Source: Salinisphaera sp. (GTDB lineage: Bacteria; Pseudomonadota; Gammaproteobacteria; Nevskiales; Salinisphaeraceae). From it: a stretch of 43,653 nt of DNA. Position numbers and translations under genes: made by a program. The first letter of the stretch is position 1. Every line of letters starts with the position of its first letter. The notes beneath the pieces were generated by a model. That model was not told the DNA's origin. It saw only the letters and a list, made by a program, of their open reading frames with translations, and did not search any database. The DNA is taken from contig JAQIBT010000027.1 in assembly GCA_027858915.1 (NCBI GenBank), positions 1 through 43,653 of the forward strand, in the 5' to 3' direction. This document shows, in pieces, positions 1 through 23,689 of the stretch.

Positions 1-312
1 AAAACCGTTGAGGGCGGCAATGGATACGCCCTGATACGCCGACAGGCGTTCGAACGCTCGGCCAAAAGCACGGGCCCAATCCGAGGCCACTGCCTTGTCG
101 CCCTGGGCGAACGCCGAAAGATCAGCCCCGGCCGAGAAAAATTTCTCGCCGGCGCCCGTGATCACCAGTGCGTAGTTGCCCGGATCGGCGTCAAGCGCCT
201 CGACGGCCTCGTACAACTCGTCCAAGGCGTCCCGGCTCCAGGTATTGGCCGGCGGATTGTTGATTGTCAGCACGGCCACAACGCCCTGCTTTTCCATCTG
301 AATATGACTCAT
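1..312 (-). CDS. Enoyl-CoA hydratase, N-terminal part (runs off the left edge)
   Basis: The first 104 codons of a crotonase-fold enoyl-CoA hydratase/isomerase, expected to hydrate methacrylyl-CoA in valine breakdown. The start ATG at 312-310 has a strong ribosome site (AAAGGAG) five bases upstream. The N-terminus shows the family strand VAVLTINNPPANTWS and the first oxyanion-hole segment FFSAGADLSAF near residues 58-68. The second oxyanion loop and catalytic Glu lie beyond the window. It follows the acyl-CoA dehydrogenase gene by 36 bases on the same strand, the order seen in mms-type valine operons (aldehyde dehydrogenase, acyl-CoA dehydrogenase, hydratase). The substrate is inferred from context. 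A decayed gene of the same type lies at 21564-21923. Confidence 0.88.
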   Translation of the reverse strand, partial: MSHIQMEKQGVVAVLTINNPPANTWSRDALDELYEAVEALDADPGNYALVITGAGEKFFSAGADLSAFAQGDKAVASDWARAFGRAFERLSAYQGVSIAALNGF

Positions 313-348
313 GCCATCTCCTTTGATCGCCTTGTCGAGCGATCGTGT

Positions 349-1509
349 CTACTGCATCTGTTCCAAGACGCCGTCCGCCAGAACACGACGGGCGATGACC
401 AGCCGCATGATCTCATTGGTGCCTTCCAGGATCTGATGCACCCGGAGATCCCGCACCATGCGCTCCAGCGGATATTCGCGGATATAGCCATAGCCGCCGT
501 GGAGTTGCAGCGCGTCGTTGCAGACGTTGAAGCCAGCGTCGGTGGCAAAACGCTTGGCCATGGCGCAATAGCTGCTGGCCTCGGGATCCTGTCGATCGAG
601 CTTGCTCGCGGCCAGCCGCACCATCTGACGCGCCGCCACCAGCTCGGTGGCCATGTCCGCAAACTTGAATTGCAGGGCCTGAAAACCATCCAGGCGAGTG
701 CCAAACTGGCGACGCTGTTTCATGTAGTCGCGGGTTATTTCCATCGCTGCCTGGGCGGTACCGATCGAACACGTCGCAATATTGATCCGTCCACCGTCCA
801 GGCCTTTCATGGCGAACTTGAAGCCCTCGCCTTCGGCACTGATCCGATGTCGCGCCGAAATACGCACATCGTCGAAGTTGATCGAGCGCGTGGGCTGGGC
901 GTTCCAGCCCATCTTTGGCTCTTTTCGACCATAGGACACGCCGGCTGCGTCGCCCGGCACCAGAAAGCAACTGATGCCTTTGGTCTTGTCTTCGCTGGTG
1001 CGGGCCATGACCACGAGCGCTTCGGTTTCGCCGGCGCCGGAGGTAAACACCTTGCCGCCGTTGAGCAGATAATCGTCGCCGTCGCGGCGAGCGGTGGTCT
1101 TCAGGCTGGCCGCATCCGAGCCAGCACCCGACTCGGTCAGGCAATACGAGGCCAGTTTCTGCCCCGAGGTCAGGGGTTCGCCCCATTCGGCCACCAGCTC
1201 ATCGCTGCCGAAGCTGGTGACCATCCAGGTCGCCATGTTGTGAATGGTCATGAACGCAGTGGTGGTCGTGCAGCCCTTGCACAGCGCTTCAAACACGATC
1301 GAGGCATCCAGCCGCGGCAGGCCCAGCCCGCCTGCGCTGGTGGGCGCATACAGGCCACAGAATCCCAGCTCTCCGGCCCGTGCAATCACGTCCTTGGGAA
1401 AATGCGCGTTGATATCCCATTCGGCCGCGTGCGGCGCCATCTCGTTCATGGCGAAGTCGCTGGCCGCTTCGCGATAAGCGCGTTGTTCTTCGTTCAGCTC
1501 GAAATCCAT
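349..1509 (-). CDS. Acyl-CoA dehydrogenase, probable isobutyryl-CoA dehydrogenase
   Basis: A 386-residue flavoprotein that would oxidise isobutyryl-CoA to methacrylyl-CoA and pass electrons to ETF. Acyl-CoA dehydrogenase signatures are all present: YCLTESGAGSDAAS near the middle for FAD and substrate contact, the RRQFGTRLDGFQ segment, LHGGYGYIREYPLER, and ILEGTNEI near the C-terminus, where E362 sits at the usual catalytic-base position of short/medium-chain enzymes and of isobutyryl-CoA dehydrogenase. The length is normal. It starts one base after the stop of the mmsA remnant and precedes the hydratase gene. Isobutyryl-CoA specificity rests on neighbours and overall resemblance to the ACAD8 group; 2-methylbutyryl-CoA is an alternative. 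A shredded relative lies at 21920-22126. Confidence 0.92.
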   Translation of the reverse strand: MDFELNEEQRAYREAASDFAMNEMAPHAAEWDINAHFPKDVIARAGELGFCGLYAPTSAGGLGLPRLDASIVFEALCKGCTTTTAFMTIHNMATWMVTSFGSDELVAEWGEPLTSGQKLASYCLTESGAGSDAASLKTTARRDGDDYLLNGGKVFTSGAGETEALVVMARTSEDKTKGISCFLVPGDAAGVSYGRKEPKMGWNAQPTRSINFDDVRISARHRISAEGEGFKFAMKGLDGGRINIATCSIGTAQAAMEITRDYMKQRRQFGTRLDGFQALQFKFADMATELVAARQMVRLAASKLDRQDPEASSYCAMAKRFATDAGFNVCNDALQLHGGYGYIREYPLERMVRDLRVHQILEGTNEIMRLVIARRVLADGVLEQMQ

Positions 1510-1510
1510 T

Positions 1511-1753
1511 TCAGGTCATCCCGATTGTCAGATTGGACCCGCCGGCTGGGATACTCGAATCGGGCCAGCGTGAGATCACGGTCTGTGTTTCGGTAAAGAA
1601 GCGAAAGCCCTGTTTTCCAGAGGCATGCAAACCACTGTAGACCCTGGCCGTACCGCCGGTGAACGAAAAGAACGGCACGGGCACGGAAATCGGCAGATTC
1701 ACGCCCACCTGGCCGGCCTCGATCCCGCGGGTATACGCAAGGCGGTCAGACGA
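1511..1753 (-). pseudogene. mmsA: 3' remnant of methylmalonate-semialdehyde dehydrogenase (mmsA)
   Basis: About 80 codons matching only the C-terminus of MmsA. The segments EAGQVGVNLPISVPVPFFSF, HASGKQGF and FFTETQTVISRWPD align with the last 80 residues of the intact copy at 22163-23689 ([42 protein letters not shown]). Upstream, the frame meets a TAA at 1756-1754 and the sequence no longer resembles the family, so the NAD-binding domain, catalytic Cys and start are gone (about 430 residues lost). A Met inside the remnant at 1708 could start a 65-residue peptide, but this would not be an enzyme. The stop is one base from the ATG of the intact acyl-CoA dehydrogenase, so operon spacing survives the loss. 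Confidence 0.88.
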
Positions 1754-1777
1754 TTACGCCCCAGCCTGCTGGCGTAA
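1754..1777. promoter_or_regulatory. Inverted repeat TTACGCC-N10-GGCGTAA
   Basis: A perfect 7-base inverted repeat with a 10-base spacer at the upstream edge of the mmsA remnant, about 155 bases before the divergent thiolase gene. There is no T-run, so it does not look like an intrinsic terminator. It could be an operator for a dimeric regulator or chance. An A/T-rich imperfect repeat (CACAA-TATTT-TTGTG, 1799-1813) lies nearby, in the probable thiolase promoter region. Confidence 0.3.
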
Positions 1778-1930
1778 TTCACTGAGAATACGTCACGCCA
1801 CAATATTTTTGTGTCGAACTTGAGTCGCATAACCGGGTCGATTTCGGATAACTTGAAAGCCATCTTTTCGAATCGGCCCATCCGCTGACGCAACGAACCC
1901 GATTCATTTTCCCAGCCGGGGACCTGCACC

Positions 1931-3142
1931 ATGAATGATCCCATCGTCATCACAGGCTATGCCCGCACGCCGCAGGGCGCACTGCAGGGCAGTCTGTCCA
2001 GCCTGAGCGCGCCGGCTCTTGGCTCGGTCGCGGTACGGGCCAGCGTCGAACGCTCAGGTTTGGCCGCCGGCACTGTCGACCAGATCATCATGGGCTGCGT
2101 GCTGCCCGCAGGACTGGGCCAGGCGCCGGCGCGCCAGGCTGCGTTGGGCGCCGGCCTCGCCCAGTCGACCCAGGCCACGACCGTGAACAAGATGTGCGGT
2201 TCGGGCATGCAGGCCGCGATCATCGCGCACGATATACTCGTGGCCGGCAGCGCGGAGATCATCGTCGCCGGCGGCATGGAGTCCATGTCCAACGCGCCTT
2301 ATCTGCTGAGCCGTCATCGCGCGGGCAAGCGAATGGGCCACGACACGCTCATCGACTCCATGTTCTTCGACGGGCTGGAGGATGCCTACGAGCCAGGCAA
2401 GCTGATGGGCGCCTGTGCCGAGGATACGGCCCGCGAATACGGCCTGTCGCGCGCGGACCAGGACGCCTACGGGCTGCGCTCGCTGGAGCGCGCGAATGCT
2501 GCGATTGCCGGGGGCGCGTTCGAACGCGAGATGGCAGCGGTCGAGGTGCCGACGCGCGACGGGCCAATCATCGTGTCGGCGGACGAACAGCCCGGCAAGA
2601 CCAATCCGGACCGGATTCCCCAGCTTAAACCGGCCTTTGCCCGCGACGGCACGGTGACCGCTGCCAACTCGGCTTCGATATCCGACGGCGCGGCTGCGCT
2701 TGTGCTGATGCGCGCCTCGACGGCCCAGAGCCGCGGCCTGCCGGTCGTGGCTCGTATCGTGGCACATGCGGCCCACGCACAGGAGCCGCAGCGCTTCACG
2801 ACCGCCCCGGTCGCCGCGATTCAGAAGGTGCTGGATCGCGCCGGCTGGTCGGTCGGCGACGTCGATCTGTTCGAAGTCAATGAAGCGTTCGCCGTCGTCG
2901 CCATGATCGCCGCACAGGAACTCGGTATTGCCGACCACAGGCTCAACGTCAACGGCGGCGCCTGTGCGCTGGGACATCCGATTGGCGCCAGCGGAGCGCG
3001 GATCGTGGCTACCCTGCTCGGCGCTCTGGAAAACCGCGGCCTGCAACGCGGCGTGGCGAGCCTCTGCCTGGGCGGCGGCGAGGCCGTCGCGCTCGCCATA
3101 GAAATTGTTCAAGGCGAACTTGTTCAAGGAGACAGGCCATGA
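1931..3142 (+). CDS. Acetyl-CoA C-acyltransferase (thiolase)
   Basis: A 403-residue thiolase that cleaves a 3-ketoacyl-CoA with CoA, or runs in reverse. All catalytic elements are visible: nucleophile C89 in NKMCGSGM, H349 in GGACALGHPIGASG and C379 in CLGGGEAVAL; the NEAFA motif is also present. The length is typical of biosynthetic/short-chain thiolases. The stop overlaps the start of the next gene (ATGA at 3139-3142), so the two are translationally coupled. With the partner HSD10-like dehydrogenase, a role in the last isoleucine step (2-methylacetoacetyl-CoA to acetyl-CoA plus propionyl-CoA) or acetoacetyl-CoA cleavage after leucine breakdown is likely; the exact substrate cannot be read from sequence. 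The ribosome site (GGGGACC) before the ATG is modest. Confidence 0.93.
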   Translation: MNDPIVITGYARTPQGALQGSLSSLSAPALGSVAVRASVERSGLAAGTVDQIIMGCVLPAGLGQAPARQAALGAGLAQSTQATTVNKMCGSGMQAAIIAHDILVAGSAEIIVAGGMESMSNAPYLLSRHRAGKRMGHDTLIDSMFFDGLEDAYEPGKLMGACAEDTAREYGLSRADQDAYGLRSLERANAAIAGGAFEREMAAVEVPTRDGPIIVSADEQPGKTNPDRIPQLKPAFARDGTVTAANSASISDGAAALVLMRASTAQSRGLPVVARIVAHAAHAQEPQRFTTAPVAAIQKVLDRAGWSVGDVDLFEVNEAFAVVAMIAAQELGIADHRLNVNGGACALGHPIGASGARIVATLLGALENRGLQRGVASLCLGGGEAVALAIEIVQGELVQGDRP

Positions 3143-3900
3143 ATATTCAGGATACGCCAGCAATCGTCACCGGCGGCGCGTCGGGGCTCGGTGCGGCCAC
3201 GGCAAGAATGCTCACGGAGCACGGAGCGCGCGTTACCTTGTTCGATCAGAACGCAGATCTCGGGGCTCAGACTGCGGCCGATATCGGCGCCCGGTTCGCC
3301 GAAGTCGACGTGCGCGACGCCGAGCGCATCGACCACGCGCTGGCCGAAGCCGAACAGGCCAACGGGGTCGCACAGATACTGATCAACTGCGCCGGAATCG
3401 CACCAGCCATGCGCCTGGTCGGCAAGGACGGCAGCCCGCATTCTGCCGAGGTCTTTCGCAACGCGATCGAGATCAACCTGATCGGCACGTTCAACGTGAT
3501 GTCGCGCTTTGCCGCCCGTCTTGCGGCCGTCGAACCGGCCGGCGAGGAACACGGCATGATCGTCAATACCGCGTCCATCGCGGCGTTCGAGGGCCAGATC
3601 GGACAGGCCGCCTATGCCTCGTCCAAGGGCGGCGTGGCCAGCCTGACCCTGCCCGCCGCGCGCGAACTGGCGCGCCATCGCATCCGGGTCGTGGCGATCG
3701 CGCCCGGTCTGTTCGAAACGCCGATGATGGCCGGACTGCCGCAGGCAGCCCGGGATTCGCTCGGCGAACAGGTGCCGCATCCGAGTCGGCTCGGCAAACC
3801 GGCCGAATTCGCAACGCTTGTCAAATCGATCCTGGACAACCCCATGCTCAACGGCGAAGTGATCCGACTCGACGGCGCGATCCGGATGGCGCCGCGTTAG
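3139..3900 (+). CDS. SDR-family 3-hydroxyacyl-CoA dehydrogenase (HSD10-like)
   Basis: A 253-residue classical short-chain dehydrogenase resembling type II 3-hydroxyacyl-CoA dehydrogenase (human HSD17B10), which oxidises 2-methyl-3-hydroxybutyryl-CoA in isoleucine breakdown. Visible are the nucleotide-binding TGGASGLG at residues 11-18, a following acidic D36 favouring NAD, the NCAG loop at 83-86 and the catalytic set S146, Y159 and K163 (NTASIAAF, YASSK). The C-terminal part (APGLFETPMM, HPSRLGKPAEFA, NGEVIRLDGA) matches the HSD10 group. The start overlaps the thiolase stop and has AAGGAGA eight bases before it. No gene follows on this strand, so it ends a two-gene operon. Confidence 0.92.
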   Translation: MNIQDTPAIVTGGASGLGAATARMLTEHGARVTLFDQNADLGAQTAADIGARFAEVDVRDAERIDHALAEAEQANGVAQILINCAGIAPAMRLVGKDGSPHSAEVFRNAIEINLIGTFNVMSRFAARLAAVEPAGEEHGMIVNTASIAAFEGQIGQAAYASSKGGVASLTLPAARELARHRIRVVAIAPGLFETPMMAGLPQAARDSLGEQVPHPSRLGKPAEFATLVKSILDNPMLNGEVIRLDGAIRMAPR

Positions 3901-4018
3901 GCGTTGATTCCGTATTGGTGCAGTCCTCGCCGATCATCAGCTGACGATAGCGGCCTGGATTGGCTCCATTCAACGGTAAAAAGCACGAGGGACAGAAACG
4001 CAAGAAGAGTAGATAATC

Positions 4019-4063
4019 AGTGCGTTTTTAATCTGCGTTCATCTGCGGATAAAATGTTTTTTT
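4019..4063. repeat. Short ATCTGCG tandem motif and T-run in a convergent gap
   Basis: The 253-base gap between convergent genes (3901-4153) is more A/T-rich than its surroundings and holds no gene I can support. It carries ATCTGCG twice at a 10-base period (4031-4037 and 4041-4047), preceded by a related AGTGCG, and then seven Ts (4057-4063). I recall similar ATCTGCG strings in intergenic DNA of unrelated bacteria, but cannot verify this here. No stable hairpin precedes the T-run, so a terminator is not supported. Confidence 0.3.
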
Positions 4064-4153
4064 GCCTCTGGAAGATTACTGCATTGGCGTTCATTTACGG
4101 ACGAGATTTCAGCCCTGCATCGGTAGTTCAATCACTGATCATGCATCCTGAAA

Positions 4154-5041
4154 TCACGCTTTCTGGCCAGCCCGCGCCAGGATGCGCTGTGCGATATCGA
4201 CATGGGGTTTGTCTAGCATGTGCCCGTCGAGCGAAAAAACGCTCTGTTCCGGATGATCGCGTACCAACGCCTGCACACGCTCTGCCCACTCGATGGTGCT
4301 GGCAGCCGGCGCCGAGGCTTGGTGAATGGTGTCGATCTGGCCGGGGTGAATTGCCATCTTGGCTGTATAGCCAAGCCCAACTGCCGTCTGACAAGCCTCG
4401 GTCAATGCATCAATGTCGTGAATCGCAGTGCTGATGCCGTCGATGGCGTCTACGCCGGCCGCCGACGCCGTGTACAGACAATGCAACTGCACCGATTCGG
4501 CGATTCGACGGTCAGCCGACGCAGCACTGCCCAGCGGCACACGACCCAGATCGGCCGACAGGTCCTCAACGCCCCAGGCATAGCCTCGCAGGCGCGGATG
4601 GCCGCGCGCCAGCGTCGCCGCCTGCTCCCCTGCCAGCGCGGCCGCGCTTTCCGTGATGATGCCTACGATCCTGACGGGTTGGGCGGCGAGACCGTCACGT
4701 TGTTCCAGTGCGTCCAGCCAGTGGCCCATCTGAACAAGCTGCGAATGCGACGCCAGTTTCGGATAGAAAACGCCGGTCATGCGCGCCAGCGGCAATGCCG
4801 ACAATTCGGCCAGCGCCATATTCGAATCGATCGTGTTCACTCGAACCCAGACTTCGGGCGCGTCTGGTGCGGGTTGCCAGGCGGCCAGGAAATCACGGGT
4901 GGTCCTGAGCGCTTCGTCCTTGCGCGAAGGCGCCACCGAGTCTTCGAGATCGAGAATGATCGCGTCGGCGCTGCTGCTCGCTGCCTTGTCGATTTTGCGT
5001 ACGGAATCGCCCGGAACAAACAGATAGCTGCGGGGCGTCAT
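4154..5041 (-). CDS. HpcH/HpaI-family CoA-ester lyase (CitE/citramalyl-CoA lyase-like)
   Basis: A 295-residue TIM-barrel lyase of the CitE/malyl-CoA/citramalyl-CoA lyase family, which cleaves 3-hydroxyacyl-CoA esters with a divalent metal. The N-terminus RSYLFVPGDSVRKI, the metal-region motif AIILDLEDSVAPSRKDEA and the later YAWGVEDLSADLG and AKMAIHPGQI are characteristic. The gene overlaps the MaoC gene upstream by four bases (ATGA), implying coupled expression and probably sequential reactions. In itaconate breakdown of Pseudomonas a MaoC hydratase and a CitE-type (S)-citramalyl-CoA lyase act in sequence, but the CoA-transferase partner is not here. Location at the end of the leucine operon allows another branched substrate. 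Family is certain, substrate not. Confidence 0.88.
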   Translation of the reverse strand: MTPRSYLFVPGDSVRKIDKAASSSADAIILDLEDSVAPSRKDEALRTTRDFLAAWQPAPDAPEVWVRVNTIDSNMALAELSALPLARMTGVFYPKLASHSQLVQMGHWLDALEQRDGLAAQPVRIVGIITESAAALAGEQAATLARGHPRLRGYAWGVEDLSADLGRVPLGSAASADRRIAESVQLHCLYTASAAGVDAIDGISTAIHDIDALTEACQTAVGLGYTAKMAIHPGQIDTIHQASAPAASTIEWAERVQALVRDHPEQSVFSLDGHMLDKPHVDIAQRILARAGQKA

Positions 5042-5502
5042 TGTGCGTCCTCGCTCGGTCGGCGACGCATCAGGGCCTGCCGGCGACAGAATGCGACTTC
5101 CACGCCGTCCTGGTTATAGCCGCGATGGATGAATTCCACGATGCCGCGGTCGGGCTTTGACTTGCTCGGGCGCGCGCTGGCAACTTCGGTCGTCACCGAC
5201 AGCGTATCGCCGTGAAATACCGGCGCCGGGAAACGGGTTTCGGTCATGCCCAGGTTGGCAATCGTGGTGCCAAGCGTCGTCTCGTGCACAGAGATGCCGA
5301 TCATCAGGCCGAGGGTGAAAAGACTGTTGACCAGCGGGCGTCCGAACTCGGTCTGTGAGGCGAAATGTCGATCGATATGCAGCGGCTGCGGGTTCATGGT
5401 CATGCCACAGAACAGCATGTTGTCAGACTCGGTGATCGTGCGCGTCAGCGCATGCTCGACGCACCATCCTGCGATCAGATCCTCAAAATAAAGTCCTGCC
5501 AT
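5038..5502 (-). CDS. MaoC-family acyl-CoA hydratase
   Basis: A 154-residue single hot-dog-fold hydratase related to mesaconyl-CoA/itaconyl-CoA hydratases. The hydratase-2 motif is present: TESDNMLFCGMTMNPQPLHID, with D28 and H42 as the expected catalytic pair. A conserved GRPLVNS segment follows, then FPAPVFHGDTL. It would add water to an enoyl-CoA made by the synthetase upstream or by the leucine pathway. It overlaps the CitE-like lyase by four bases and begins 39 bases after the acyl-CoA synthetase. Such MaoC plus CitE pairs are also seen next to branched-chain acyl-CoA genes in other bacteria. The substrate is unknown. Confidence 0.88.
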   Translation of the reverse strand: MAGLYFEDLIAGWCVEHALTRTITESDNMLFCGMTMNPQPLHIDRHFASQTEFGRPLVNSLFTLGLMIGISVHETTLGTTIANLGMTETRFPAPVFHGDTLSVTTEVASARPSKSKPDRGIVEFIHRGYNQDGVEVAFCRRQALMRRRPSEDAQ

Positions 5503-5541
5503 GGCTTTGGCTCCGTATTTTCCAGTGATATCACCGATCCA

Positions 5542-7230: not shown

Positions 7231-7436
7231 GATGTTGTTCTCCTGTCGCACGCAAGTATCTTATTTCACCTTATTTTTATCAGCAGAGCCTGCCCAAGGC
7301 GCCATTCGGGCGAGTCGATAATCGGCCACCTGTGGCGTTGCGTCTGATCGCTTCTCGTCTCGCCGATGACATCAAATAAGGTACTAGGACGATCTTTGCG
7401 TCCGTTGTTGTTATCCGGCTACGGGCTGGGTCGGCG

Positions 7437-9407
<1,971 letters not shown>

Positions 9408-9416
9408 GCCGGCCTC

Positions 9417-11024: not shown

Positions 11025-11033
11025 TGCAGAACA

Positions 11034-12197: not shown

Positions 12198-12316
12198 GGC
12201 TTTCAACTCCTCCTCCGACGCCGCTCGCCCATGGGTCTATCGGCGGTGGGCCAAACCCGCGGTTGGGCTCTCAACGCGCCGGATTGGTATTCGATTTCTG
12301 CATTGAATATATTTAA

Positions 12317-12330
12317 TGAATCAATATTCA
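12317..12330. promoter_or_regulatory. Palindrome TGAAT-N4-ATTCA, candidate TetR operator
   Basis: A perfect 5+5 palindrome with a 4-base centre lies in the A/T-rich stretch (about 12290-12340) between the divergent liuA and tetR genes. A second TGAATAT half-site at 12304-12310 pairs with ATATTCA at 12324-12330, giving a nested 7-base repeat with a 13-base spacer. The position, 22 bases from the tetR ATG and about 120 from liuA, suits an operator controlling both genes. The evidence is symmetry and location only. Confidence 0.5.
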
Positions 12331-12352
12331 TAAATTCAAGCACACCCTGCCC

Positions 12353-12964
12353 ATGAAGTACAGGCGTTCGTCGGAAATGGAAGCACGACTGGCCGACAAC
12401 CGCGATCGCATCATGCGGGCCACGCGGGCGCTGATTGCGCAAGGCGGCTTTCACGAAGTGTCGATCAGCGCAGTTGCCGAGAGTGCCGGTTTGTCGAGCG
12501 GTTCGATTTATCGCTATTTTCCGTCCAAGTCCGAGCTGTATGTTCAGGCGCTGATGGACGCTGTAGATCACGAAGTCGAGATCCTGCAGACCATCGTCGA
12601 CACCAACCAACACGCGACAGATCGGCTGCACGCCGCGATTCACTCGTTCGTCACTCGGGCATTGGAAGGGCCGCATCTGGCCTATGCTTTCATTGCAGAA
12701 CCAATCGATCCCCAGGTTGATGCCGGGCGAATCATCTGTCGGCAGCGCTTCGGCGAAGTGTTCGTGAAACTTCTACGCGACGGCGTCGACCGCGGTGAAT
12801 TTCCGGATCAGGATGTTGAGGTCAGTGCTGCCTGTCTGGTTGGCGCTTTTACCGAAGCCCTGGTCAGGCCCGTAGCTGCCACTGAAAAACCGGCCGACAA
12901 GAAGCCGCTTGTCGAGGCAATCAGCCAGTTCTGTTTCCGAGCGGTGGTCGGTGTCAGTCACTGA
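12353..12964 (+). CDS. TetR/AcrR-family transcriptional regulator (LiuQ-like by position)
   Basis: A 203-residue regulator. The N-terminal DNA-binding domain is clear: RIMRATRALIAQGGFHEVSISAVAESAGLSSGSIYRYFPSKSELY, with the helix-turn-helix about residues 38-60. The C-terminal half would bind an effector and dimerise; it shows no catalytic motif. The gene is divergent from the leucine operon. TetR-type LiuQ regulators of leucine catabolism are known in some Proteobacteria, where others use MerR-type LiuR, so a liu regulator sensing a branched acyl-CoA is the best inference. The ribosome site before the ATG is poor (CACACCCTGCCC), so the mRNA may have a short leader. The 3' end overlaps the end of the convergent E3 pseudogene by seven bases. 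Confidence 0.85.
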   Translation: MKYRRSSEMEARLADNRDRIMRATRALIAQGGFHEVSISAVAESAGLSSGSIYRYFPSKSELYVQALMDAVDHEVEILQTIVDTNQHATDRLHAAIHSFVTRALEGPHLAYAFIAEPIDPQVDAGRIICRQRFGEVFVKLLRDGVDRGEFPDQDVEVSAACLVGAFTEALVRPVAATEKPADKKPLVEAISQFCFRAVVGVSH

Positions 12965-13872
12965 TGCGTTCGGAAAAAGCCGAAATCAATCATCAATTGC
13001 TCCTGCTCCCCGCCATGTTTACCAACGATGATTTCGCGCAGCGCCTCCAGCCCCAGATTCTCGCTTTGCGGGGTACGGCCAACCGCCACCAGAACGCGGT
13101 CAACAATCAGCGTCTCGCGCTGGCCGTTCGCCACGGTCTCCAGCGTGACCGCGAGCGCATCGCCTTTGGCCCGGTGGCCTACGGCGCGAATCTCGGTCTG
13201 GATTGTGATGCCCTGCCCGGCCAGAATCTTCGCGTATCGATCCCGCAGTTCGCCGTCGGCGCTGGCCAGAATATGGTCGAGATACTCGACCAGCGTGACC
13301 TCGCAGCCGAAGCGCCGCATGATGGTAGCGAATTCCAATCCCACCTCGCCGCCGCCGATGACCAGAACCCGGCCTGGCAGTCCGCGTTAGAGTTCGAGCG
13401 CGCCGGTCGAGTCGAGAATTCGCTGATCGTCGACGGCGAAACCGTCCAGCGCAGCCGGTCGGGCCCCGGTAGCGATCACGAACTGCCGTGCTTCCAGACG
13501 CTCACCGTCGACCTCGATGGCCCGCGGGTCGACGAAACGTGCACGCCCGCTATGACAAGCGATTTTCCGTGCGCGGAACAACGACGCGATACCGTTGCTG
13601 AGCTGTTTGACCACGCCGCGGCGCCAATCACCCAGTTCATCCAGGCGAATTTCTGGCGCGCCGAAATGCAGGCCGAACCGGGAGGCATGGCGCGCTTGTT
13701 CGAGTTCGGCCGCGGCGTGCAGCAACGCCTTGGTAGGAATACAGCCGACGTTGAGACACACCCCGCCGGCCGGTCCGGCGTCCACGACGGCGACATCCAG
13801 ACCCAACTGCGCAGCGCGGATCGCTGCGTGGTAGCCGCCGGGTCCGGTACCGATGACAATCAGATCTTTCAT
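12958..13872 (-). pseudogene. Dihydrolipoamide dehydrogenase (BCKDH E3), nonsense and truncated
   Basis: The E3 gene of the branched-chain 2-oxoacid dehydrogenase operon, broken. The N-terminal FAD domain is good: IVIGTGPGGYHAAIRAAQLG and the redox disulfide C39/C44 in GGVCLNVGCIPTKALLH. After STGALEL a TAA at 13389-13387 interrupts the frame; the same frame then continues with GLPGRVLVIGGGEVGLEFAT and the NAD domain to VLVAVGRTPQSENLGLEAL. There similarity ends and a short unrelated tail stops at 12958. The second FAD-contact motif and the whole dimerisation domain with the active-site His-Glu pair, about 160-170 residues, are missing. The start overlaps the E2 stop (ATGA). At best a 161-residue fragment is made, which cannot be an active E3. 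Confidence 0.9.
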
Positions 13873-15299
13873 ATCGCGTCGAGCAGCAGTTCTTCGGGCC
13901 GCTCCAGCAAACCGACGACTGCCATCAGGAAATGCGTGGCCTCAGCCCCATCCACCAGCCGATGATCGAACGAAAGGGACAGATACATCATCGGCCGGAT
14001 ATGGACCTCGCCGTCGATCGCCACCGGTCGCTCGCGGATGGCGTGTACGCCGAGAATGGCGGCATCCGGTGAGTTGATGATGGGAAAACTCATCAGCCCG
14101 CCGATGGAGCCGATATTGGTCACCGAGCAGGTGGCACCGCGCAGTTCGGCCGGGTCGAGCCGGCCTTTGCGCGCACCTTCCGACAGCCGATTGATCTCGG
14201 CGGCGACGTCGCTCAGCGACCGCGCGTCCACGTCGCGGACCACCGGCACCATCAGCCCCTTGTCGGTCGCCACCGCCAGCCCGATGTTGTAGTAGTCCTT
14301 GTAGACGATTTCGTTGTTGACCTCGTCCAGACTCGTATTCACTTCCGGATACGTCTTCAAAGCCGAAACCAGCGCCTTGAACACGAACGGCAAGAAGCTC
14401 AGGCGCACGCCGCGCGCTTCTGCCCGCGCACGCAGCGCACCGCGCAGTGTCTGCAAGCGCGTCATATCGACTTCCTCGACCACCAGCGTGCGGACCGCGT
14501 GCAGATGCGAGTTCGTCATCTGTTGCGCAATCGTCTTGCGCATCCCGCGCAGGGGTAGCCGTCGCTCGCGCTCGGCATAGCCGGCCGGCGTGTGGTAGGC
14601 CAGCGGCGCGAGCACCGCGCCGTCTGCCGCAGACGCATCGGTGCCGGCTACGCGCTCGACGTGGCGTTTTACGTCATCCACCCGAATACGTCCGACCGGC
14701 CCGGAGCCGGTCACGTCTTCGATATTCACCCCAAGACGCCGGGCTGCGATACGCGCCGCCGGCACGGCGCGCGGGCGCACGGGCGCCCCTCGCGCTTCGG
14801 GTTCGTCGTCGACGCTTGTACGCGCTGGGGAATCCAGAAAAGGATTGGACACGTCCGCCTCGGCCCCGGCGGACGGCTTGAACAGACTCAGACGGTCGCC
14901 GTCATCGTCCGAATCCTGTGCTGTGGCGCCGAATTGATCGTCGGCCGCGGTCTTCTCCGGCAAGCGCTCATCCGAGTCAGAGCCCGGGTCGGATCCGGTC
15001 GCGGAGGAATCATCCGCTGCGGCCGGCGCATCAGCCTGCGCCTGATCGGCGTCCTGCGGCTGCGAATCGTCGATACGCGCGACCGGGGCGCCGACCGCAA
15101 TCGTTTCACCGACTTTGACCAGACACGCGGTGACTCTGCCGGCATACGGACTCGGCAGTTCGACCGTGGCCTTGTCCGAAGACACCTCCAGCAACGGCTG
15201 GTCGCGTTCGACCAGATCGCCCTCGGCTACAAACCACTCGATAACTTCGGCCTCGACGATCGATTCCGCCAGTTCCGGCAGTTGGACTTGTTTATCCAT
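13869..15299 (-). CDS. bkdB: Branched-chain 2-oxoacid dehydrogenase E2 (dihydrolipoyl acyltransferase)
   Basis: A 476-residue E2 core protein transferring branched acyl groups from lipoyl-lysine to CoA. Domains in order: one lipoyl domain (residues 1-78, K43 in SSDKATVE), a long linker (about 80-175) unusually rich in Asp, Glu, Ala and Ser, the E1/E3-binding domain (about 178-215, [20 protein letters not shown]), and the catalytic domain ending with [16 protein letters not shown], where His and Asp are the acyltransferase residues. The length is typical for one lipoyl domain. It lies 12 bases after E1beta and overlaps the broken E3. The acidic linker may reflect a salt-adapted host. Confidence 0.94.
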
Positions 15300-15311
15300 A
15301 GCGTTTCCAGA

Positions 15312-16349: not shown

Positions 16350-16350
16350 A

Positions 16351-17463: not shown

Positions 17464-17700
17464 CGCTCTCCTCCGAATCAATCCAGCAGGCCGGAATCTG
17501 CTACGAATCCGGCTTGTATTACTTGTTAATAACGACTCTAGACCGCATTGCGCAGGTTTTGTAGCTTTTTATTGGCCTGATCGTAGTCGATGGTTTTTGT
17601 CAAAAGTCGAATAGAGGAGCTGACGATCATGCCGTGGCGCGGCGCCAGGTTGACTGGGAAATATTCTGGTCTTTGCCCCAAACGCGTTCGTAATCGCCGA

Positions 17701-19386
17701 TCAGTCGGAACTCTCAACGAAGTCGGATTCGCGATAGGTGAATTCACTGGTTTCCGCTCCGGCAGCATGCGCACGCAGCTCGACCCGTCGAATCTTCCCG
17801 GAAATAGTCTTGGGCAGTTCGGCGAACTCAAGGACGCGGATACGCTTGTACGGCGCCATGCGTTGGCGGCAGAACAGGAACAGCGAGCGGGCCGCCTCGG
17901 CGCCCGGCGTGACGCCGGGGCGCAGCACGATATAGGCCTTGGGGATACTCAGGCGCAGCGCATGTGGCTCCGGCACGACTGCGGCCTCGGCCACTGATTC
18001 ATGCTCGATCAGGATGGATTCGAGCTCAAATGGACTGATGCGATAGTCCGAACTCTTGAACACGTCGTCTGCGCGGCCGACGTACCAGTAGTAGCCATCC
18101 TCATCGCGTCGGGCGACGTCGCCGGTACGGTAGAAGCCGTCGTGCAGCGCATGCGCCATACGCTCCGGATCGTCGCGGTATTCGGTCATCAGCCCGGTCG
18201 GACGCGCGTTGCGTATATCGATGGCTATTTCGCCCTCTTCGGCCTCCTGATCATCGACGTCGAGCAGCGCAATGGCATAGCCCGGCAGCGGTCGGCCCAT
18301 CGAACCGGCGTGCATCGGCTGACCGGGCGGATTACCGATCAGCGCGGTGGTCTCGGTCTGGCCGTAGCCGTCACGGATCGTCAAACCCCAGGCTCGATCG
18401 ACCCGGGCGATGACTTCGGGATTGAGCGGCTCGCCGGCGCCGACCAGGCTTTTGAGCGAGACATCGTAGGCCGCCAGGTCCTCCTGAATCAGCAACCGCC
18501 ACACGGTGGGCGGTGCACATAGACTGGTCACGCGCTTGTCGGCAATGATCGCCAGCGTTTCAGGCGCAGAAAAACGCGCGCTTCGGTAGACGAATACCGC
18601 AGCCCCTGCGTCCCAGGGCGCGAACAGGCTGCTCCAGGCATGTTTGGCCCAGCCCGGCGAGCTGATGTTGAAGTGGACGTCGCCCGGAGCAAGCCCGATC
18701 CAGTACATCGTCGACAGCGAGCCCACCGGATAGCTGGCCTGGGTATGACAGACAAGCTTGGGCCGGGATGTCGTCCCGGAGGTGAAATACAGCAGCATCG
18801 GATCGGATGCATGCGTCACCCCGTCGGGCTCGAACGAGGTATTCGCCTCGTAGGCGCCGGCGTAATCCACCCAGGAAGCCGGCGCACCGCCGAGCGCAAT
18901 ACAGGTCAGGCCATCGGCGATGCCGGCGAACTGGCCGCTGTGTTCGGCGGCGGTCAGGACGTGAGTGACCCGGCCACGAGCCAGCCGGTCGGCCAGATCA
19001 TCTCTTGAGAGCAAGGTGGTCGCCGGGATGCTCACCGCGCCGAGCTTGATCGCTGCGAGCATGGTCTCCCAGAGCGGTGCCACATTGTCGAGCATGACCA
19101 GCAGCGCATCGCCACGACGCAGACCATTGGCGCGCAGGAAATTGGCGACCTGGTTGGAGCGGACCGCCATCTCGGCAAAGCTGTAGCGCTGCTCGCTGCC
19201 GTCGGCATCGACCAGCCACAGGGCGGTATCGTGATTATCCGCGGCGTAGTCGTCGAACCAGTCCAGCGCCCAGTTGAATTCGTCCAGTTCCGGCCATTTG
19301 AATGTTTCGTAAGCACGGTCGTGGTCGTTGCGCAGATCCAGCAGCTGTTGCCGCGCCGTCTTGAACGCTTCCGCAGAATGCGTCAT
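17701..19386 (-). CDS. AMP-binding acyl-CoA synthetase (medium/branched-chain type)
   Basis: A 561-residue ANL-family ligase. Motifs: YFTSGTTSRPKLV (the P-loop Gly after TT is Ser here, seen in some members), DGYGQTETT, FYRTGDVARRDEDGYYWYVGRADDVFKSSDYRISPFE and the C-terminal ISGKIRRVELR. It looks like the MACS/benzoate-CoA ligase side of the family rather than long-chain ligases. The ATG at 19386 (MTHSAEAF) has GAGGAAGG just upstream and replaces a longer frame starting 16 codons earlier. It sits between mmsB and the bkd genes on the same strand, so activation of isobutyrate, 2-methylbutyrate or isovalerate is plausible but unproven. Confidence 0.88.
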   Translation of the reverse strand: MTHSAEAFKTARQQLLDLRNDHDRAYETFKWPELDEFNWALDWFDDYAADNHDTALWLVDADGSEQRYSFAEMAVRSNQVANFLRANGLRRGDALLVMLDNVAPLWETMLAAIKLGAVSIPATTLLSRDDLADRLARGRVTHVLTAAEHSGQFAGIADGLTCIALGGAPASWVDYAGAYEANTSFEPDGVTHASDPMLLYFTSGTTSRPKLVCHTQASYPVGSLSTMYWIGLAPGDVHFNISSPGWAKHAWSSLFAPWDAGAAVFVYRSARFSAPETLAIIADKRVTSLCAPPTVWRLLIQEDLAAYDVSLKSLVGAGEPLNPEVIARVDRAWGLTIRDGYGQTETTALIGNPPGQPMHAGSMGRPLPGYAIALLDVDDQEAEEGEIAIDIRNARPTGLMTEYRDDPERMAHALHDGFYRTGDVARRDEDGYYWYVGRADDVFKSSDYRISPFELESILIEHESVAEAAVVPEPHALRLSIPKAYIVLRPGVTPGAEAARSLFLFCRQRMAPYKRIRVLEFAELPKTISGKIRRVELRAHAAGAETSEFTYRESDFVESSD

Positions 19387-19467
19387 ATCGCCTTCCTCGC
19401 ATTGAAGGCGGCCCGGGCTCGTCGGGCCCGCCATAATTGTAGTTATTTTTACTCGACACCGGCTTTT

Positions 19468-20367
19468 TCAATCGCTGGGACAACCCTTCAGCAGATTGAT
19501 GATGCTGGAGAAATCGTCGCCGCCGTGACCGGCCCGGCTATGCACCGCATACAGGCTGCGCGCCATCGAGCCCAGCGGCGTGGCAACGCCGTTCTTCAGA
19601 CTCGAATCCATCGCCAGGCCCAGATCCTTGAGCATCAGATCGACCCCAAAGCCGGGCTTGTAGCCATGGGATGCGGGTGCATTGTCCATGACCCCCGGAT
19701 AGGGGTTGTATACATTGAGCGCCCAGTTGCCACCGGAGGCGTTTTTCATGATGTCCGAAACAACCGCCGGATCGAGCCCGTTAGCGACTGCCAGATTGAT
19801 CGCCTCGGAGGTACCCGTCATCAGAATCCCGAGCAGCATGTTGTTGCACATCTTGGCAACCTGTCCGGCGCCGGCCGCCCCGGCATGGAAGGCCACCTTG
19901 CCCATCACGTCGAACAGCGGCCGGGCGCGCTCGACGTGCTCGGCAACGCCCCCGACCATGAACGTCAAGCCGCCCGCTTTAGCGCCGTTGACACCGCCCG
20001 AGACAGGAGCATCAAGCATCGCCACACCGCGCTTGCCCGCCGCGCTGGCCACCCGCCGCGACGTTTCCGCATCGATCGTACTGCTGTCGATCAGAAGCGT
20101 TGTCTGATCGACCGCCTCCAGTAGGCCACCGCTGCCGAGATACAGATCCTCGACGTGCCGACCCGCCGGTAGCATGGAAATCACCACATCCACATCGGCC
20201 GCCGCCGCAGCCGCGCTGTCGGCGCGCTGGGCGCCGGCTGCCACGGCGTCCTCCAGCGCCTCCTGGACCAGATCAAAGACCGTCAGCGCATAGCCGGCTT
20301 CAATCAGATTGTTGGCCATCGGGGCGCCCATATTGCCCAGTCCAATGAATGCGATCTTTTCCGCCAT
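19468..20367 (-). CDS. mmsB: 3-hydroxyisobutyrate dehydrogenase
   Basis: A 299-residue beta-hydroxyacid dehydrogenase oxidising 3-hydroxyisobutyrate to methylmalonate semialdehyde with NAD in valine breakdown. Family signatures are complete: N-terminal IAFIGLGNMGAPMANNL, the substrate motif DAPVSGGVNGAKAGGLTFMVGG (S123) and the catalytic lysine K172 in GAGQVAKMCNNMLLG. The ATG at 20367 has AGGAG six bases upstream; a GTG one codon earlier is less well placed. It follows the hydrolase gene by 63 bases and precedes an acyl-CoA synthetase. Its product is the substrate of MmsA, encoded in the same operon. Confidence 0.95.
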   Translation of the reverse strand: MAEKIAFIGLGNMGAPMANNLIEAGYALTVFDLVQEALEDAVAAGAQRADSAAAAAADVDVVISMLPAGRHVEDLYLGSGGLLEAVDQTTLLIDSSTIDAETSRRVASAAGKRGVAMLDAPVSGGVNGAKAGGLTFMVGGVAEHVERARPLFDVMGKVAFHAGAAGAGQVAKMCNNMLLGILMTGTSEAINLAVANGLDPAVVSDIMKNASGGNWALNVYNPYPGVMDNAPASHGYKPGFGVDLMLKDLGLAMDSSLKNGVATPLGSMARSLYAVHSRAGHGGDDFSSIINLLKGCPSD

Positions 20368-20430
20368 CACGTTCTCCTGTTCAAATTCAGCATCGAGACT
20401 CGGCCGACCTACGGACAGGTCTCGCGATTC

Positions 20431-21567
20431 CTATAAATCCGCCAGCGGGTGGCCGCTGTAGTCGTCCGGCAATCTGAAATGCGCGTCGATGCTCGCCGGA
20501 TCGACCTGATCCAGACGCGACGGCTGCCACTGCGGGTTTTTGTCCTTGTCGATCAGCAGCGCACGCACGCCTTCCACCAGATCAGGCTGACGCGTACGCT
20601 GCACTGCCATCGCCAGATCCTGTCGAAATACGTCCTCGATCGAGGCCTTGGCGTCGTGCGCGAGCTGACGATGCACCACCGCCAATGAACTGGGTGAGCC
20701 CGCAGCCATGGCTCTGGCGCCGTGGGCATACCAGTCGTCGGCCGCCGCCTCGCGCGTCAAGCACATCTGGTACTCCGCCACGCCCACGGTCTCGGCAAGA
20801 CGCGCAATCGTGGTTTGCCGGGCAAACAACGGAGAGTCGGCGCGCGCTGCATCTGCCGAGTCCTCGTCTTCGAATTCGCGCAGCACGCCCGCCAGCAGAA
20901 CGTCGTCGTAACGCCGCTCACCGTGCCAGTCGAGCGTCGTGAGCGCATCGAACAAGGCGCTACGCTGCTCATCTTCCAGCCGATAATCAGCCAGCCCCAG
21001 CCAGAGCGCATCGCCGGCAAACATCGGCGTGGTCGACAGCCCCAGAAACAGCCCGATCCGCGACGGCATGCGGCCCAGAAACCAGCTCGCGCCGACGTCC
21101 GGGAACAAGCCTATCGTGACCTCGGGCATTGCAATCCGACTGGATTGCGTCACTACGCGATGGCTGGCGCCGGCCATCAGCCCCAGGCCACCGCCCATGA
21201 CCACGCCATGACCCCAGCACAGAAACGGTTTCGGATAACGATGGATCAGGTGATCGAGGCGATATTCCACCGCGAAATAATGCTCGGCTTCGCCGCCGGA
21301 CCCGTCGTCTGCTTCGCGTATGGCCCGATACAGCCCGACGATATCACCGCCCGCGCAAAAGGATTTTGCGCCACTGCCGGATAACACCACACAGGCGATG
21401 TCGTCGCGGGCTGCCCACTCCTCGAGCTTTGGCAGGAGCGCATCAATCATGGGCAGCGAGAGCGCGTTCAGCGAACGCTCTGCGTTGAGCCGAGCATAGC
21501 CCACACAGTGACCGTTGCCCGTGTCGCGTTCTTCGAATATGACGGATATCTCAGTCTTCTCAGTCAT
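20431..21567 (-). CDS. 3-hydroxyisobutyryl-CoA hydrolase
   Basis: A 378-residue crotonase-fold hydrolase freeing 3-hydroxyisobutyrate from CoA, the step that distinguishes valine breakdown. It shows [13 protein letters not shown] (70-82), [17 protein letters not shown] (121-137), and E149 with D157 in [15 protein letters not shown]; these are spaced by eight like the Glu169/Asp177 pair of human HIBCH. The C-terminus [21 protein letters not shown] is the HIBCH hallmark, absent from ordinary hydratases. The ATG at 21567 overlaps the stop of the hydratase remnant (ATGA at 21567-21564), which decides against an upstream ATG at 21582 and shows that operon coupling survived the decay of the preceding gene. 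Confidence 0.94.
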
Positions 21568-21923
21568 CGCTGGACGTTCCAATTCGGCGAGCGCTGGTTT
21601 AGAAGCACCTGCACTCCTTCATGTGGATCTTCGGTGTCGAACAGACCCGCGAACACGTGATGCGCGCCGGCACGGCCGGCTTCCAGGGCGCCGTGCTGGG
21701 CCGTATCGATCAACCGCTTGCTTGCGGCGGCTGCGCGTGGCCCCTGCTGGCCTGCCTGTTCTGCCAGCCACGGCAGGCGCTGGGTTCCGCCGCCTGGGAG
21801 CAGGCCGATCTTCGTCTCCGGCAAGCCGAGTTTTTCCGGCGACTCCGCCATTCGAATATCGCAGGCCAGCGTCAGAATCGCTAACCGGCCGGCGTTGTGG
21901 ATTGTTGGTTGCTCGTTGCTCAT
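21564..21923 (-). pseudogene. Internally deleted enoyl-CoA hydratase
   Basis: About 119 codons remain of a gene that should have about 260. The open frame joins an N-terminal stretch ([19 protein letters not shown]) directly to the core segment [32 protein letters not shown], then to a C-terminal scrap ending [20 protein letters not shown], the usual end of a hydratase. The first oxyanion-hole region (about 80 residues) and much of the C-terminal domain are missing. The frame remains open and the ATG overlaps the preceding remnant's stop (ATGA, 21923-21920), while its own stop overlaps the hydrolase start. A folded hydratase is not possible. The intact counterpart is the gene at 1-312. Confidence 0.87.
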
Positions 21924-22126
21924 CGAAGTGCTTCTCCATTGATACATCCGCCGTCCCGGCCCGTCATAGCGGCCTCGAAGCCCTGTCCTTGTGCGCTCGG
22001 CCGGTTAGCACCCGGCTCGCTCAGGCAATACACGGCCAGGCTTTCGGCGCTTGCCAACACGCGCATGCGAACTCCAGCATCGCTTCACGCACAACTCTTT
22101 GTGCATCCGCTCGGTTCGACATCCAT
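21920..22126 (-). pseudogene. Shredded acyl-CoA dehydrogenase (three short pieces)
   Basis: Three scraps of a gene like the isobutyryl-CoA dehydrogenase at 349-1509 lie in order within 207 bases. They are: the start MDVE followed, one frame over, by ADAQRVVREAMLEFA (compare the intact N-terminus MDFELNEEQRAYREAASDFA); [18 protein letters not shown] (compare LTSGQKLASYCLTESGAG); and [17 protein letters not shown] (compare GEGFKFAMKGLDGGRIN). At least two frameshifts and two or three deletions removed over 300 residues, including the catalytic Glu region. It sits between intact mmsA and the hydratase remnant, exactly where an mms-type operon carries this gene. Confidence 0.85.
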
Positions 22127-22162
22127 GATGGTCCCCTGCTCGTAGCGGAGCGCGGCACGTGG

Positions 22163-23689
22163 CTAAGCCATATTGATGGTCATGTCGGGCCCGTCTGGCA
22201 CGTCATCCTCTGGCCAGCGCGACAGCACCGTCTTGGTCTCGGTGTAGAAACGCACGGCCTGCTTGCCGTACGCATGCAGATCGCCGAAGAACGAATTCTT
22301 GGAACCGGTGAATGAAAAGAACGGCGCCGGCACCGGAATCGGCAGATTGATACCGACCTGGCCCACTTCCGTGTCGTGCTGATACTTGCGCGCAGCCGCC
22401 CCTGATTTGGTAAAGATAGAGGTGCCGTTGCCGTAGGGGTTGGCGTTGATCAGATCGATCGCTTCCTCGAGCGTATCGACGTGCATCAGGCACAACGCCG
22501 GGCCGAAGATTTCCTCCTGGTAGACGCGCATGTTGGTGGTGACGTTGTCGAAAAGCGTGGGGCCCACCCAGTTGCCATCGGGATAGCCTTCGACTACACA
22601 GTCCGAGCCGTCGAGCAGAACGTCCGCGCCTTCACCCGCCGCACCGGCAATGATCTCGCGCACACGATCGCAGGATTTCCTATTGATCAGAGGGCCATAG
22701 GCGGCATTCTCGTCGCCCGGCGCGCCCGGCCGAATTCCAGCCAGGGCCGTCTTGATATCAGACACCCAGCCGCGGGTACTTTCACCGACCAGTACTGCGA
22801 CCGAAATGGCCATGCAGCGCTGCCCGGCAGCACCACAGGATGATCCCACCAGCGCCGACACCACCCGTTCCTTATCGGCATCGGGCATGACCACCATGTG
22901 GTTCTTGGCGCCGGCCATCGCCTGCACGCGCTTCAAGTTATCGGCGCCGCGACGATAGACGTACTGGGCGACCGGCACCGAGCCAACAAACGATATGGCC
23001 TTGATATCCGGATGATCGAGAATGGCATCGACCTGGCGTTTGTCGCCGTGAATCACCTGTAACAATCCCGACGGGAAACCCGCCTCGACGAACAGCTCGG
23101 CAAGCATGGTCGGCGTCAGCGGATCCTGCTCGGACGGTTTCAGCACGAAAGCGTTGCCGCAGGCCACCGCCAGCGGGTACATCCACAGCGGGATCATGGC
23201 CGGGAAATTGAACGGCGTGATGCCGGCACAAACGCCGATCGGGTGCACATAGCTGTGGGTATCAATATTGGATGCCACGTTCTCGGCCGTCTCACCCATC
23301 ATATGGGTGGTCATACCACAACCGTGTTCCACCACTTCGATGCCGCGCCAGACGTCGCCCATGGCATCTGCAAAGGTCTTGCCGGTTTCCTCTGCCAGCA
23401 CCGTGGCGATCTCCTGCTGGTGTTCCTTGAGCAGCGCCTGATAACGCAGTAGACAACGCACGCGTTGAACCGTGGGGACATCCCGCCACTGCTTGAATGC
23501 CACCTTGGCCGATCCGATGGCTCGATCCATTTCCTGGCCGGTGGCGACCGGCACCTGCGCGATGACTTCCTGGGTCGCCGGGTTGTTCAACTCAATCCAG
23601 TCGGCTGTATCGCTATCGACGAAAGCTCCGTCGATGAAAAGCGGCACCCGCCGGCTCTGACGAATTCGATCAATGATCTTGCTGGTCAT
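22163..23689 (-). CDS. mmsA: Methylmalonate-semialdehyde dehydrogenase (CoA-acylating)
   Basis: A 508-residue aldehyde dehydrogenase converting methylmalonate semialdehyde to propionyl-CoA, and malonate semialdehyde to acetyl-CoA, with CoA and NAD. It shows the NAD-fold strings [16 protein letters not shown] and [28 protein letters not shown], and the nucleophile C292 in [17 protein letters not shown]. The usual ALDH general-base Glu motif is replaced by [14 protein letters not shown], the mark of the CoA-acylating MMSDH group. The length is normal. It is the first gene of the second valine operon. It could also serve beta-alanine breakdown, because the bauA-like aminotransferase nearby makes malonate semialdehyde. 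Confidence 0.96.

What the first reader, a model, noticed from the sequence alone, without database searches (positions are those of the whole stretch)
1..23689. Two valine-degradation operons that decayed in a complementary way
Seen: the operon at 1-1753 keeps acyl-CoA dehydrogenase and hydratase but has only the last 80 codons of mmsA. The operon at 19468-23689 keeps mmsA, hydrolase and mmsB but has only scraps of acyl-CoA dehydrogenase (21920-22126) and hydratase (21564-21923), in the same order. Known: mms-type operons run mmsA, acyl-CoA dehydrogenase, hydratase, hydrolase, mmsB. Inference: a duplicated or horizontally doubled operon resolved by reciprocal loss, so a complete pathway is split across two loci 20 kb apart. 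This is a compact natural case of subfunctional gene loss. The left operon may have lost or kept hydrolase and mmsB beyond the edge.
Basis: partly seen in the sequence, partly recalled or inferred. Interest (0 to 1): 0.82.

Follow-up and report, generated by a model that had tools for sequence, protein, structure and literature searches.

The report
Two unlike valine operons, complementary losses
A bacterium carries its genus's own valine-breakdown operon, from which two genes have rotted away, together with part of a second operon of a different lineage that still has an intact copy of at least one of them; the rotted genes kept their reading frame, perhaps so that the genes behind them are still translated.

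Summary
The window is a whole contig. The right operon (mmsA, hydrolase, mmsB) is the genus's own: seven of 13 same-genus genomes hold it with acyl-CoA dehydrogenase (ACAD) and hydratase between mmsA and hydrolase. Here those two are remnants after seven indels (+1, -268, -273, -414, -291, -3, -129 bp). The left pieces are not a duplicate: the left ACAD groups with another genus of the family (100/99), outside the native clade (100/100), and the left mmsA tail is 56% identical to the right mmsA. So these are two operons of different descent with complementary retention. The genome has no other ACAD, hydrolase or mmsB of these types, but three further mmsA-like genes. Not shown: that the left hydratase is whole (the contig ends inside it; its second half is found nowhere), or that a left hydrolase and mmsB were lost rather than unassembled. 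New here: the right remnants return to frame, keep both ATGA overlaps, and the ACAD one has lost protein constraint, as expected if frameshifts were removed because they would silence the downstream hydrolase. That reading is suggestive (p 0.001-0.05, post hoc, one locus). The complementation is a known kind of event.

The parts
1..312 (-). first 104 codons of the left enoyl-CoA hydratase, cut by the contig end
   Evidence: 71% to G015, 38-45% to the seven genus-native hydratases; PF00378; C-terminal half not found in the genome
349..1509 (-). intact isobutyryl-CoA dehydrogenase-type ACAD of the left operon
   Evidence: 386 aa; best solved relative human ACAD8 1rx0, 462 bits, next 295; sister to G015, 100/99; other ACAD matches in the genome at most 32%
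1514..1753 (-). 3' remnant of a left mmsA (homologous part about 1517-1738)
   Evidence: 66% to G015 mmsA, 56% to the right mmsA; a motif conserved in the right mmsA and G015 is changed; no in-frame ATG seen before the homologous part
1931..3142 (+). thiolase, divergent from the left operon
   Evidence: TIGR01930 400 bits, cut-off 241; thiolase structures
3139..3900 (+). HSD10-like 3-hydroxyacyl-CoA dehydrogenase (SDR)
   Evidence: solved relatives are mostly 3-hydroxyacyl-CoA dehydrogenases, including type II; NCBIfam matches are FabG-like and below cut-off
17701..19434 (-). acyl-CoA synthetase at the end of the native operon
   Evidence: directly behind mmsB at 76-78% in the four relatives fetched widely
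19468..20370 (-). mmsB, 3-hydroxyisobutyrate dehydrogenase
   Evidence: TIGR01692 404 bits, cut-off 292; 76-84% to the native genes
20431..21567 (-). 3-hydroxyisobutyryl-CoA hydrolase (the longer ORF starts at 21582)
   Evidence: NF004127 333 bits, cut-off 274; next match in the genome 30%
21564..21923 (-). in-frame remnant of the native hydratase, 119 codons, ATGA overlaps at both ends
   Evidence: deletions of 291, 3 and 129 bp; 57% to G011, 40% to G015's foreign type; diagnostic columns 8 native, 0 foreign, 3 neither
21920..22126 (-). remnant of the native ACAD: +1 insertion, then deletions of 268, 273 and 414 bp; frame restored after the second indel
   Evidence: relaxed codon positions 1 and 2
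22163..23689 (-). mmsA, methylmalonate-semialdehyde dehydrogenase of the native operon
   Evidence: TIGR01722 761 bits, cut-off 449; 85-87% to six same-genus genomes and 86% to the longer piece in G006
23972..25201 (-). substrate-binding protein upstream of mmsA
   Evidence: ABC-transporter binding-protein models, best TIGR03407 70 bits, far below its cut-off; next to mmsA in G003 and G008, 1.6 kb away in G004, not seen in G002

Best explanation
The cell holds two mms operons of different descent. The right one is the genus's own; its ACAD and hydratase decayed in place. The left one belongs to the lineage seen in another genus of the family and survives as ACAD plus at least the start of a hydratase behind a stump of mmsA. 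Shown: the two lineages, the remnants, and one remaining ACAD of this type. Inferred: the left ACAD (and, if whole, the left hydratase) carries out the first steps of valine breakdown and hands over to hydrolase, mmsB and mmsA of the right operon, which made the native copies dispensable. Inferred, weaker: the decaying genes lie upstream of hydrolase and mmsB and were joined to them by start-stop overlaps, so mutations that broke translation were removed and in-frame deletions were tolerated; the remnants now act as a translated bridge from mmsA to the hydrolase.
For: Seven of 13 same-genus genomes carry mmsA-ACAD-hydratase-hydrolase-mmsB (mmsA is in two pieces in G006). Left ACAD with G015 at 100/99, native clade 100/100 without it. 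In the whole genome other ACAD matches are at most 32%, the next hydrolase-like match 30%, the next mmsB-like matches 38% (partial) and 33%. Left ACAD's best solved relative is human isobutyryl-CoA dehydrogenase. Remnants: each of the six deletions has the same length against all four relatives aligned; 5 of 7 indels are multiples of 3 and the other two cancel. A four-base overlap at ACAD/hydratase occurs in 6 of 7 natives, an ATGA at the hydratase stop in 5 of 7; both overlaps are kept in the window. ACAD remnant codon positions 1-2 differ at 24-30% from natives, against 1-13% among natives: protein constraint is gone while frame is kept.
Against: The left hydratase is not shown to be whole. 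The frame test rests on one locus and was made after looking: all junctions in frame after the second indel has chance (1/3)^6 = 0.0014, but '5 or more of 7' alone gives 0.045 (my arithmetic). The ACAD start frame does stop after 13 codons; translation must restart at ATG 22066, 18 nt on (read). The hydratase remnant shows little excess at codon positions 1-2 against native pairs. Freedom from stops is weak: at 0.2 changes per site about 0.25-0.33 for the hydratase remnant and 0.61-0.66 for the ACAD blocks. No ATGA overlap between hydratase and hydrolase exists in native G003. No promoter-like or terminator-like site at 21300-22300, but only 0.3 and 0.8 were expected, so this says little. Other hydratases (26-40%) might serve. 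GC does not mark the left genes as foreign. No expression or growth data.
Confidence: 0.7

Rival explanations
1. One operon was duplicated within this lineage and the copies lost genes reciprocally.
For: Same gene order and strand 20 kb apart on one contig.
Against: Left ACAD groups with G015 and outside the genus clade; left hydratase 71% to G015 against 38-45% to natives; mmsA tail against right mmsA 56% with 0.30, 0.33 and 0.52 differences at codon positions 1, 2, 3.
Confidence: 0.05
2. Both operon types were present in the family's ancestor and were sorted by loss, so no horizontal transfer was needed.
For: The foreign type is in the same family (G015) with long branches (0.29 and 0.34); the left genes match the contig in GC.
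Against: None of the 41 genomes searched shows a second ACAD of at least 60% identity (the list is ordered by score; 17 genomes have one such match, then it drops to 41%), and 6 of 13 same-genus genomes have none.
Confidence: 0.35
3. The left ACAD and hydratase are now an isoleucine module with the divergent thiolase and HSD10-like dehydrogenase, and only secondarily serve valine; loss of the left mmsA was then a by-product of a rearrangement.
For: The SDR's solved relatives include HSD10; thiolase and SDR lie next to the stump; 53 of 80 named loci have a thiolase match upstream of mmsA and 54 of 80 an SDR match downstream of the mms genes, the latter only 32-38% where printed.
Against: The ACAD is closest to the isobutyryl type (ACAD8 462 bits; short/branched-chain type 2jif 213 bits); no other member of the type is left for valine. 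G015 shows no match to these two genes at 35% or more in the 20 kb fetched on each of its two contigs.
Confidence: 0.3
4. The in-frame remnants are chance; the right-hand genes simply decayed.
For: Only seven indels; binomial chance 0.045; stops expected to be few anyway.
Against: All blocks after the second indel are back in frame (0.0014) and both ATGA overlaps remain.
Confidence: 0.45
5. Assembly or binning artefact: the left end belongs to another organism.
For: 169 contigs, 2.48% contamination, contig ends inside a gene.
Against: Both loci lie on one 43.7 kb contig with similar GC.
Confidence: 0.04

Closest known systems
mms-type valine-degradation operon (mmsA-ACAD-hydratase-hydrolase-mmsB)
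   Same: Right locus has the order, strand and families of seven same-genus operons and of many named proteobacterial loci
   Different: ACAD and hydratase are remnants here; a second-lineage ACAD sits 20 kb away
Xenologous gene displacement and mosaic operons (Omelchenko and colleagues 2003, recalled, not read)
   Same: A gene of other descent takes over from the native one
   Different: Here the takeover is in trans by a partial second operon, and the native genes remain as frame-kept remnants in place
Translational coupling and polarity in operons (textbook knowledge, recalled)
   Same: ATGA overlaps; upstream frameshifts expected to silence downstream genes
   Different: Here it would act as a filter on how pseudogenes decay

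Membership tests
mms valine operon (right locus) | mmsA, hydrolase and mmsB of the expected families in order | tested here: met
   TIGR01722 761 bits, NF004127 333 and TIGR01692 404, all above cut-offs
mms valine operon (right locus) | intact ACAD and hydratase between mmsA and hydrolase | tested here: not met
   1378 bp deleted in six deletions, one insertion
mms valine operon (left locus) | ACAD of isobutyryl type followed by hydratase behind mmsA | tested here: inconclusive
   ACAD intact and ACAD8-like; mmsA only a tail; hydratase cut by the contig end
mms valine operon (left locus) | hydrolase and mmsB downstream | not testable with these tools
   beyond the contig end; no second copy found elsewhere
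Recent duplicate pair (subfunctionalised paralogues) | copies closer to each other than to other species' copies | tested here: not met
   mmsA tail 56% to the right mmsA, 66% to G015
Xenologous displacement | replacing gene of different descent from the native gene | tested here: met
   ACAD tree, 97 rows; hydratase identities
Xenologous displacement | replacing gene arrived by horizontal transfer | tested here: inconclusive
   G015 is in the same family; ancestral presence not excluded
Translationally coupled remnant | remnant translation needed for downstream expression | not testable with these tools
   needs reporter or ribosome profiling

The most novel reading that the evidence does not exclude
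Pseudogenes inside an operon decay under a frame filter: the two native genes lost about 70% of their length, and the ACAD remnant its protein constraint, but only by indels that keep or restore the frame into the ATGA overlaps, so that the remnant is kept as a translated bridge to hydrolase and mmsB. If general, operon-internal remnants across bacteria should be enriched in in-frame indels and in kept start-stop overlaps compared with operon-terminal ones.
Probability: 0.4. Interest if true: 0.6.

Novelty: new variant of a known kind. Interest (0 to 1): 0.42.

Why it matters
It gives a compact case in which intact relatives, remnants and a replacing gene of other descent can be lined up base by base. 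It suggests a simple, testable rule: position in an operon decides how a gene may decay. If that holds, in-frame remnants could be mistaken for small genes, and frame-kept decay could be used to find translational coupling in genomes without experiments.

Tried and rejected
Duplication within the lineage: rejected by tree and identities. Intact third copies: none found for ACAD, hydrolase or mmsB of these types; three more MMSDH-family genes, one in an iol cluster, one beside an aminotransferase, one beside a BCCT transporter. Rest of the left operon on another contig: not found. Native-type hydratase elsewhere: none found; matches outside the window 26-37%. Base composition as a mark of transfer: uninformative. 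Dating by synonymous change: not done; third-position differences in the mmsA tails are 0.52, too high to date. Absence of stops as evidence: weak; the ACAD part used a wrong frame, so its ACAD and joint figures are discarded, and repeats the ACAD part in the right frame. Not counted among the seven indels: 18 bases at the hydratase's end present in G004 and G002 but not in G003 and G011, a 4-base gap against G003 before the ACAD start, 2 bases at the hydratase/hydrolase junction of G003 and 3-base gaps inside the hydrolase; the first three are variation among natives.

Literature: one search returned no paper; the listings (12 of 15 shown; 10 of 19 shown) hold no title or abstract start on frame-kept decay inside operons. 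Searches gave listings only. Of PMC6689899 I saw the listing and five passages. The organism's name was not established; Salinisphaera was a guess from recall when I searched and no call supports it.
Full report
What is there. The window is the complete contig C12 (43,653 bases) of a 169-contig genome. On the minus strand at its left end lie the first 104 codons of an enoyl-CoA hydratase (1-312, cut by the contig end), an intact acyl-CoA dehydrogenase (349-1509) and an open mmsA tail (1514-1753; homologous part 1517-1738). Twenty kilobases on, same strand, lie mmsA, ACAD scrap, hydratase scrap, hydrolase, mmsB and an acyl-CoA synthetase (23689 down to 17701).

The right operon is the genus's own. 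Of 13 same-genus genomes searched, seven (G002, G003, G004, G006, G008, G011, G012) hold an ACAD of this type and the order mmsA-ACAD-hydratase-hydrolase-mmsB (in G006 mmsA is in two pieces). Their mmsA is 85-87% identical to the window's (81% for the shorter piece in G006), mmsB 76-84%, hydrolase 61-66%. In the four of these fetched more widely (G002, G003, G004, G008) the acyl-CoA synthetase follows mmsB, as here; the substrate-binding protein is next to mmsA in G003 and G008, 1.6 kb away in G004 and not seen in G002. The other six same-genus genomes have no ACAD of the type.

The left pieces have a different descent. The left ACAD is 77% identical to that of G015 (same family, other genus) and 66-69% to the genus's own; the left hydratase is 71% against 38-45%. 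In a tree of 97 ACADs the left one and G015's are sisters (100/99) and the seven native ones form a clade without them (100/100). The left mmsA tail is 66% to G015 and 56% to the right mmsA. So this is not an in-lineage duplicate. Whether the second type came by transfer or was kept from a family ancestor stays open.

What the genome has besides. No other ACAD of this type (other matches at most 32%), no other hydrolase of this type (next 30%), no other mmsB of this type (38% over about half its length, with a stop; otherwise 33% or less). Three more genes match the MMSDH family at 45-47%: one beside iolD and iolC genes, one beside an aminotransferase, one beside a BCCT transporter. The second half of the left hydratase was not found in any contig and the contig end matches other contigs only at E about 0.1 or worse, so the left operon's far side is unknown.

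The scraps. Aligned with four of the seven native operons (G003, G011, G004, G002), the remnant carries a 1-base insertion near codon 7 of the ACAD, deletions of 268, 273 and 414 bp in the ACAD, and of 291, 3 and 129 bp in the hydratase; each deletion has the same length against all four. Five of the seven are multiples of three and the first two cancel (+1 -268 = -267). If lengths were random, all later junctions would be in frame with chance (1/3)^6 = 0.0014, and five or more of seven multiples with chance 0.045; both are my arithmetic, made after seeing the data. The hydratase remnant reads 119 codons without a stop and ends in the ATGA that starts the hydrolase; its own start overlaps the last ACAD stop in another ATGA. 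In natives a four-base overlap of ACAD and hydratase is found in 6 of 7 and an ATGA at the hydratase stop in 5 of 7 (in G008 the genes overlap differently, in G003 not at all). The ACAD's own start frame stops after 13 codons and would need a restart 18 nt on. The hydratase remnant is native in type: 57% to G011 and G012, 40% to G015; in 11 diagnostic columns 8 native, 0 foreign, 3 neither; 10 of 43 retained invariant positions have changed. In the ACAD remnant codon positions 1 and 2 differ from natives at 24-30%, against 1-13% among natives. In the hydratase remnant they differ at 22-37%, against 10-30% among natives, so the excess is small and not seen against every native pair; that gene evolves fast anyway.

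How it most likely works. Shown: two lineages, complementary retention, one ACAD left, and it is closest to isobutyryl-CoA dehydrogenase among solved structures (human ACAD8 462 bits, next 295). Inferred: left ACAD, with the left or another hydratase, feeds the right hydrolase, mmsB and mmsA. Inferred with less support: the native ACAD and hydratase could decay only by steps that kept ribosomes running into the hydrolase gene. No promoter-like or terminator-like site was found at 21300-22300, where 0.3 and 0.8 were expected by chance.

Surroundings. Between the two loci lie a thiolase and an HSD10-like dehydrogenase (1931-3900), a CitE-like lyase and a MaoC hydratase, an acyl-CoA ligase, a biotin carboxylase pair and an ACAD, a TetR-type regulator and an E1/E2 2-oxoacid dehydrogenase-like set whose NCBIfam matches are below cut-off: a broad neighbourhood that fits branched-chain catabolism. 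Of 80 named loci with a related ACAD, 53 have a thiolase match upstream of mmsA and 54 an SDR match downstream of the mms genes (the SDR matches are weak), so the left genes may also serve isoleucine.

Verdict. A real, well-observed case, better described as complementary retention between two operons of different descent than as a doubled operon. That class of event is known. The frame-kept remnants are the part worth following.

Noticed in passing
window 4154-5502: CitE-like lyase next to a MaoC-type hydratase beside biotin carboxylase genes and an ACAD; G008 has MaoC and CitE in the same order behind its carboxylase genes. It recalls the leucine route with an R-specific HMG-CoA lyase reported for Rv2498c (PMC6689899, listing and passages seen); the mycobacterial gene order is recalled only.
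   Followed up: partly
L052, between mmsA (ends 5139) and ACAD (starts 6420): G008 has an insert of about 1.2 kb between mmsA and ACAD of its otherwise intact operon, including what looks by eye like a small RelE/ParE-like ORF; no family search was run on it.
   Followed up: no
L050 7206-9053: In G006 the native mmsA is found in two pieces with a gap of about 385 bases: a possible second decaying copy or an assembly problem.
   Followed up: no
L066 (contig C86) 1-928: A hydratase of 227 aa lacks about 40 N-terminal residues of its relatives and follows what looks by eye like the end of an ATPase ORF.
   Followed up: no
window 12203-13965: ORFs of 157 and 333 aa without any Pfam match beside a TetR-type regulator; they overlap other ORFs and may not be genes.
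   Followed up: no
L067 and L068: In G015 mmsA is split between the ends of two contigs (C57 and C22), so its operon start could not be read in one piece.
   Followed up: partly
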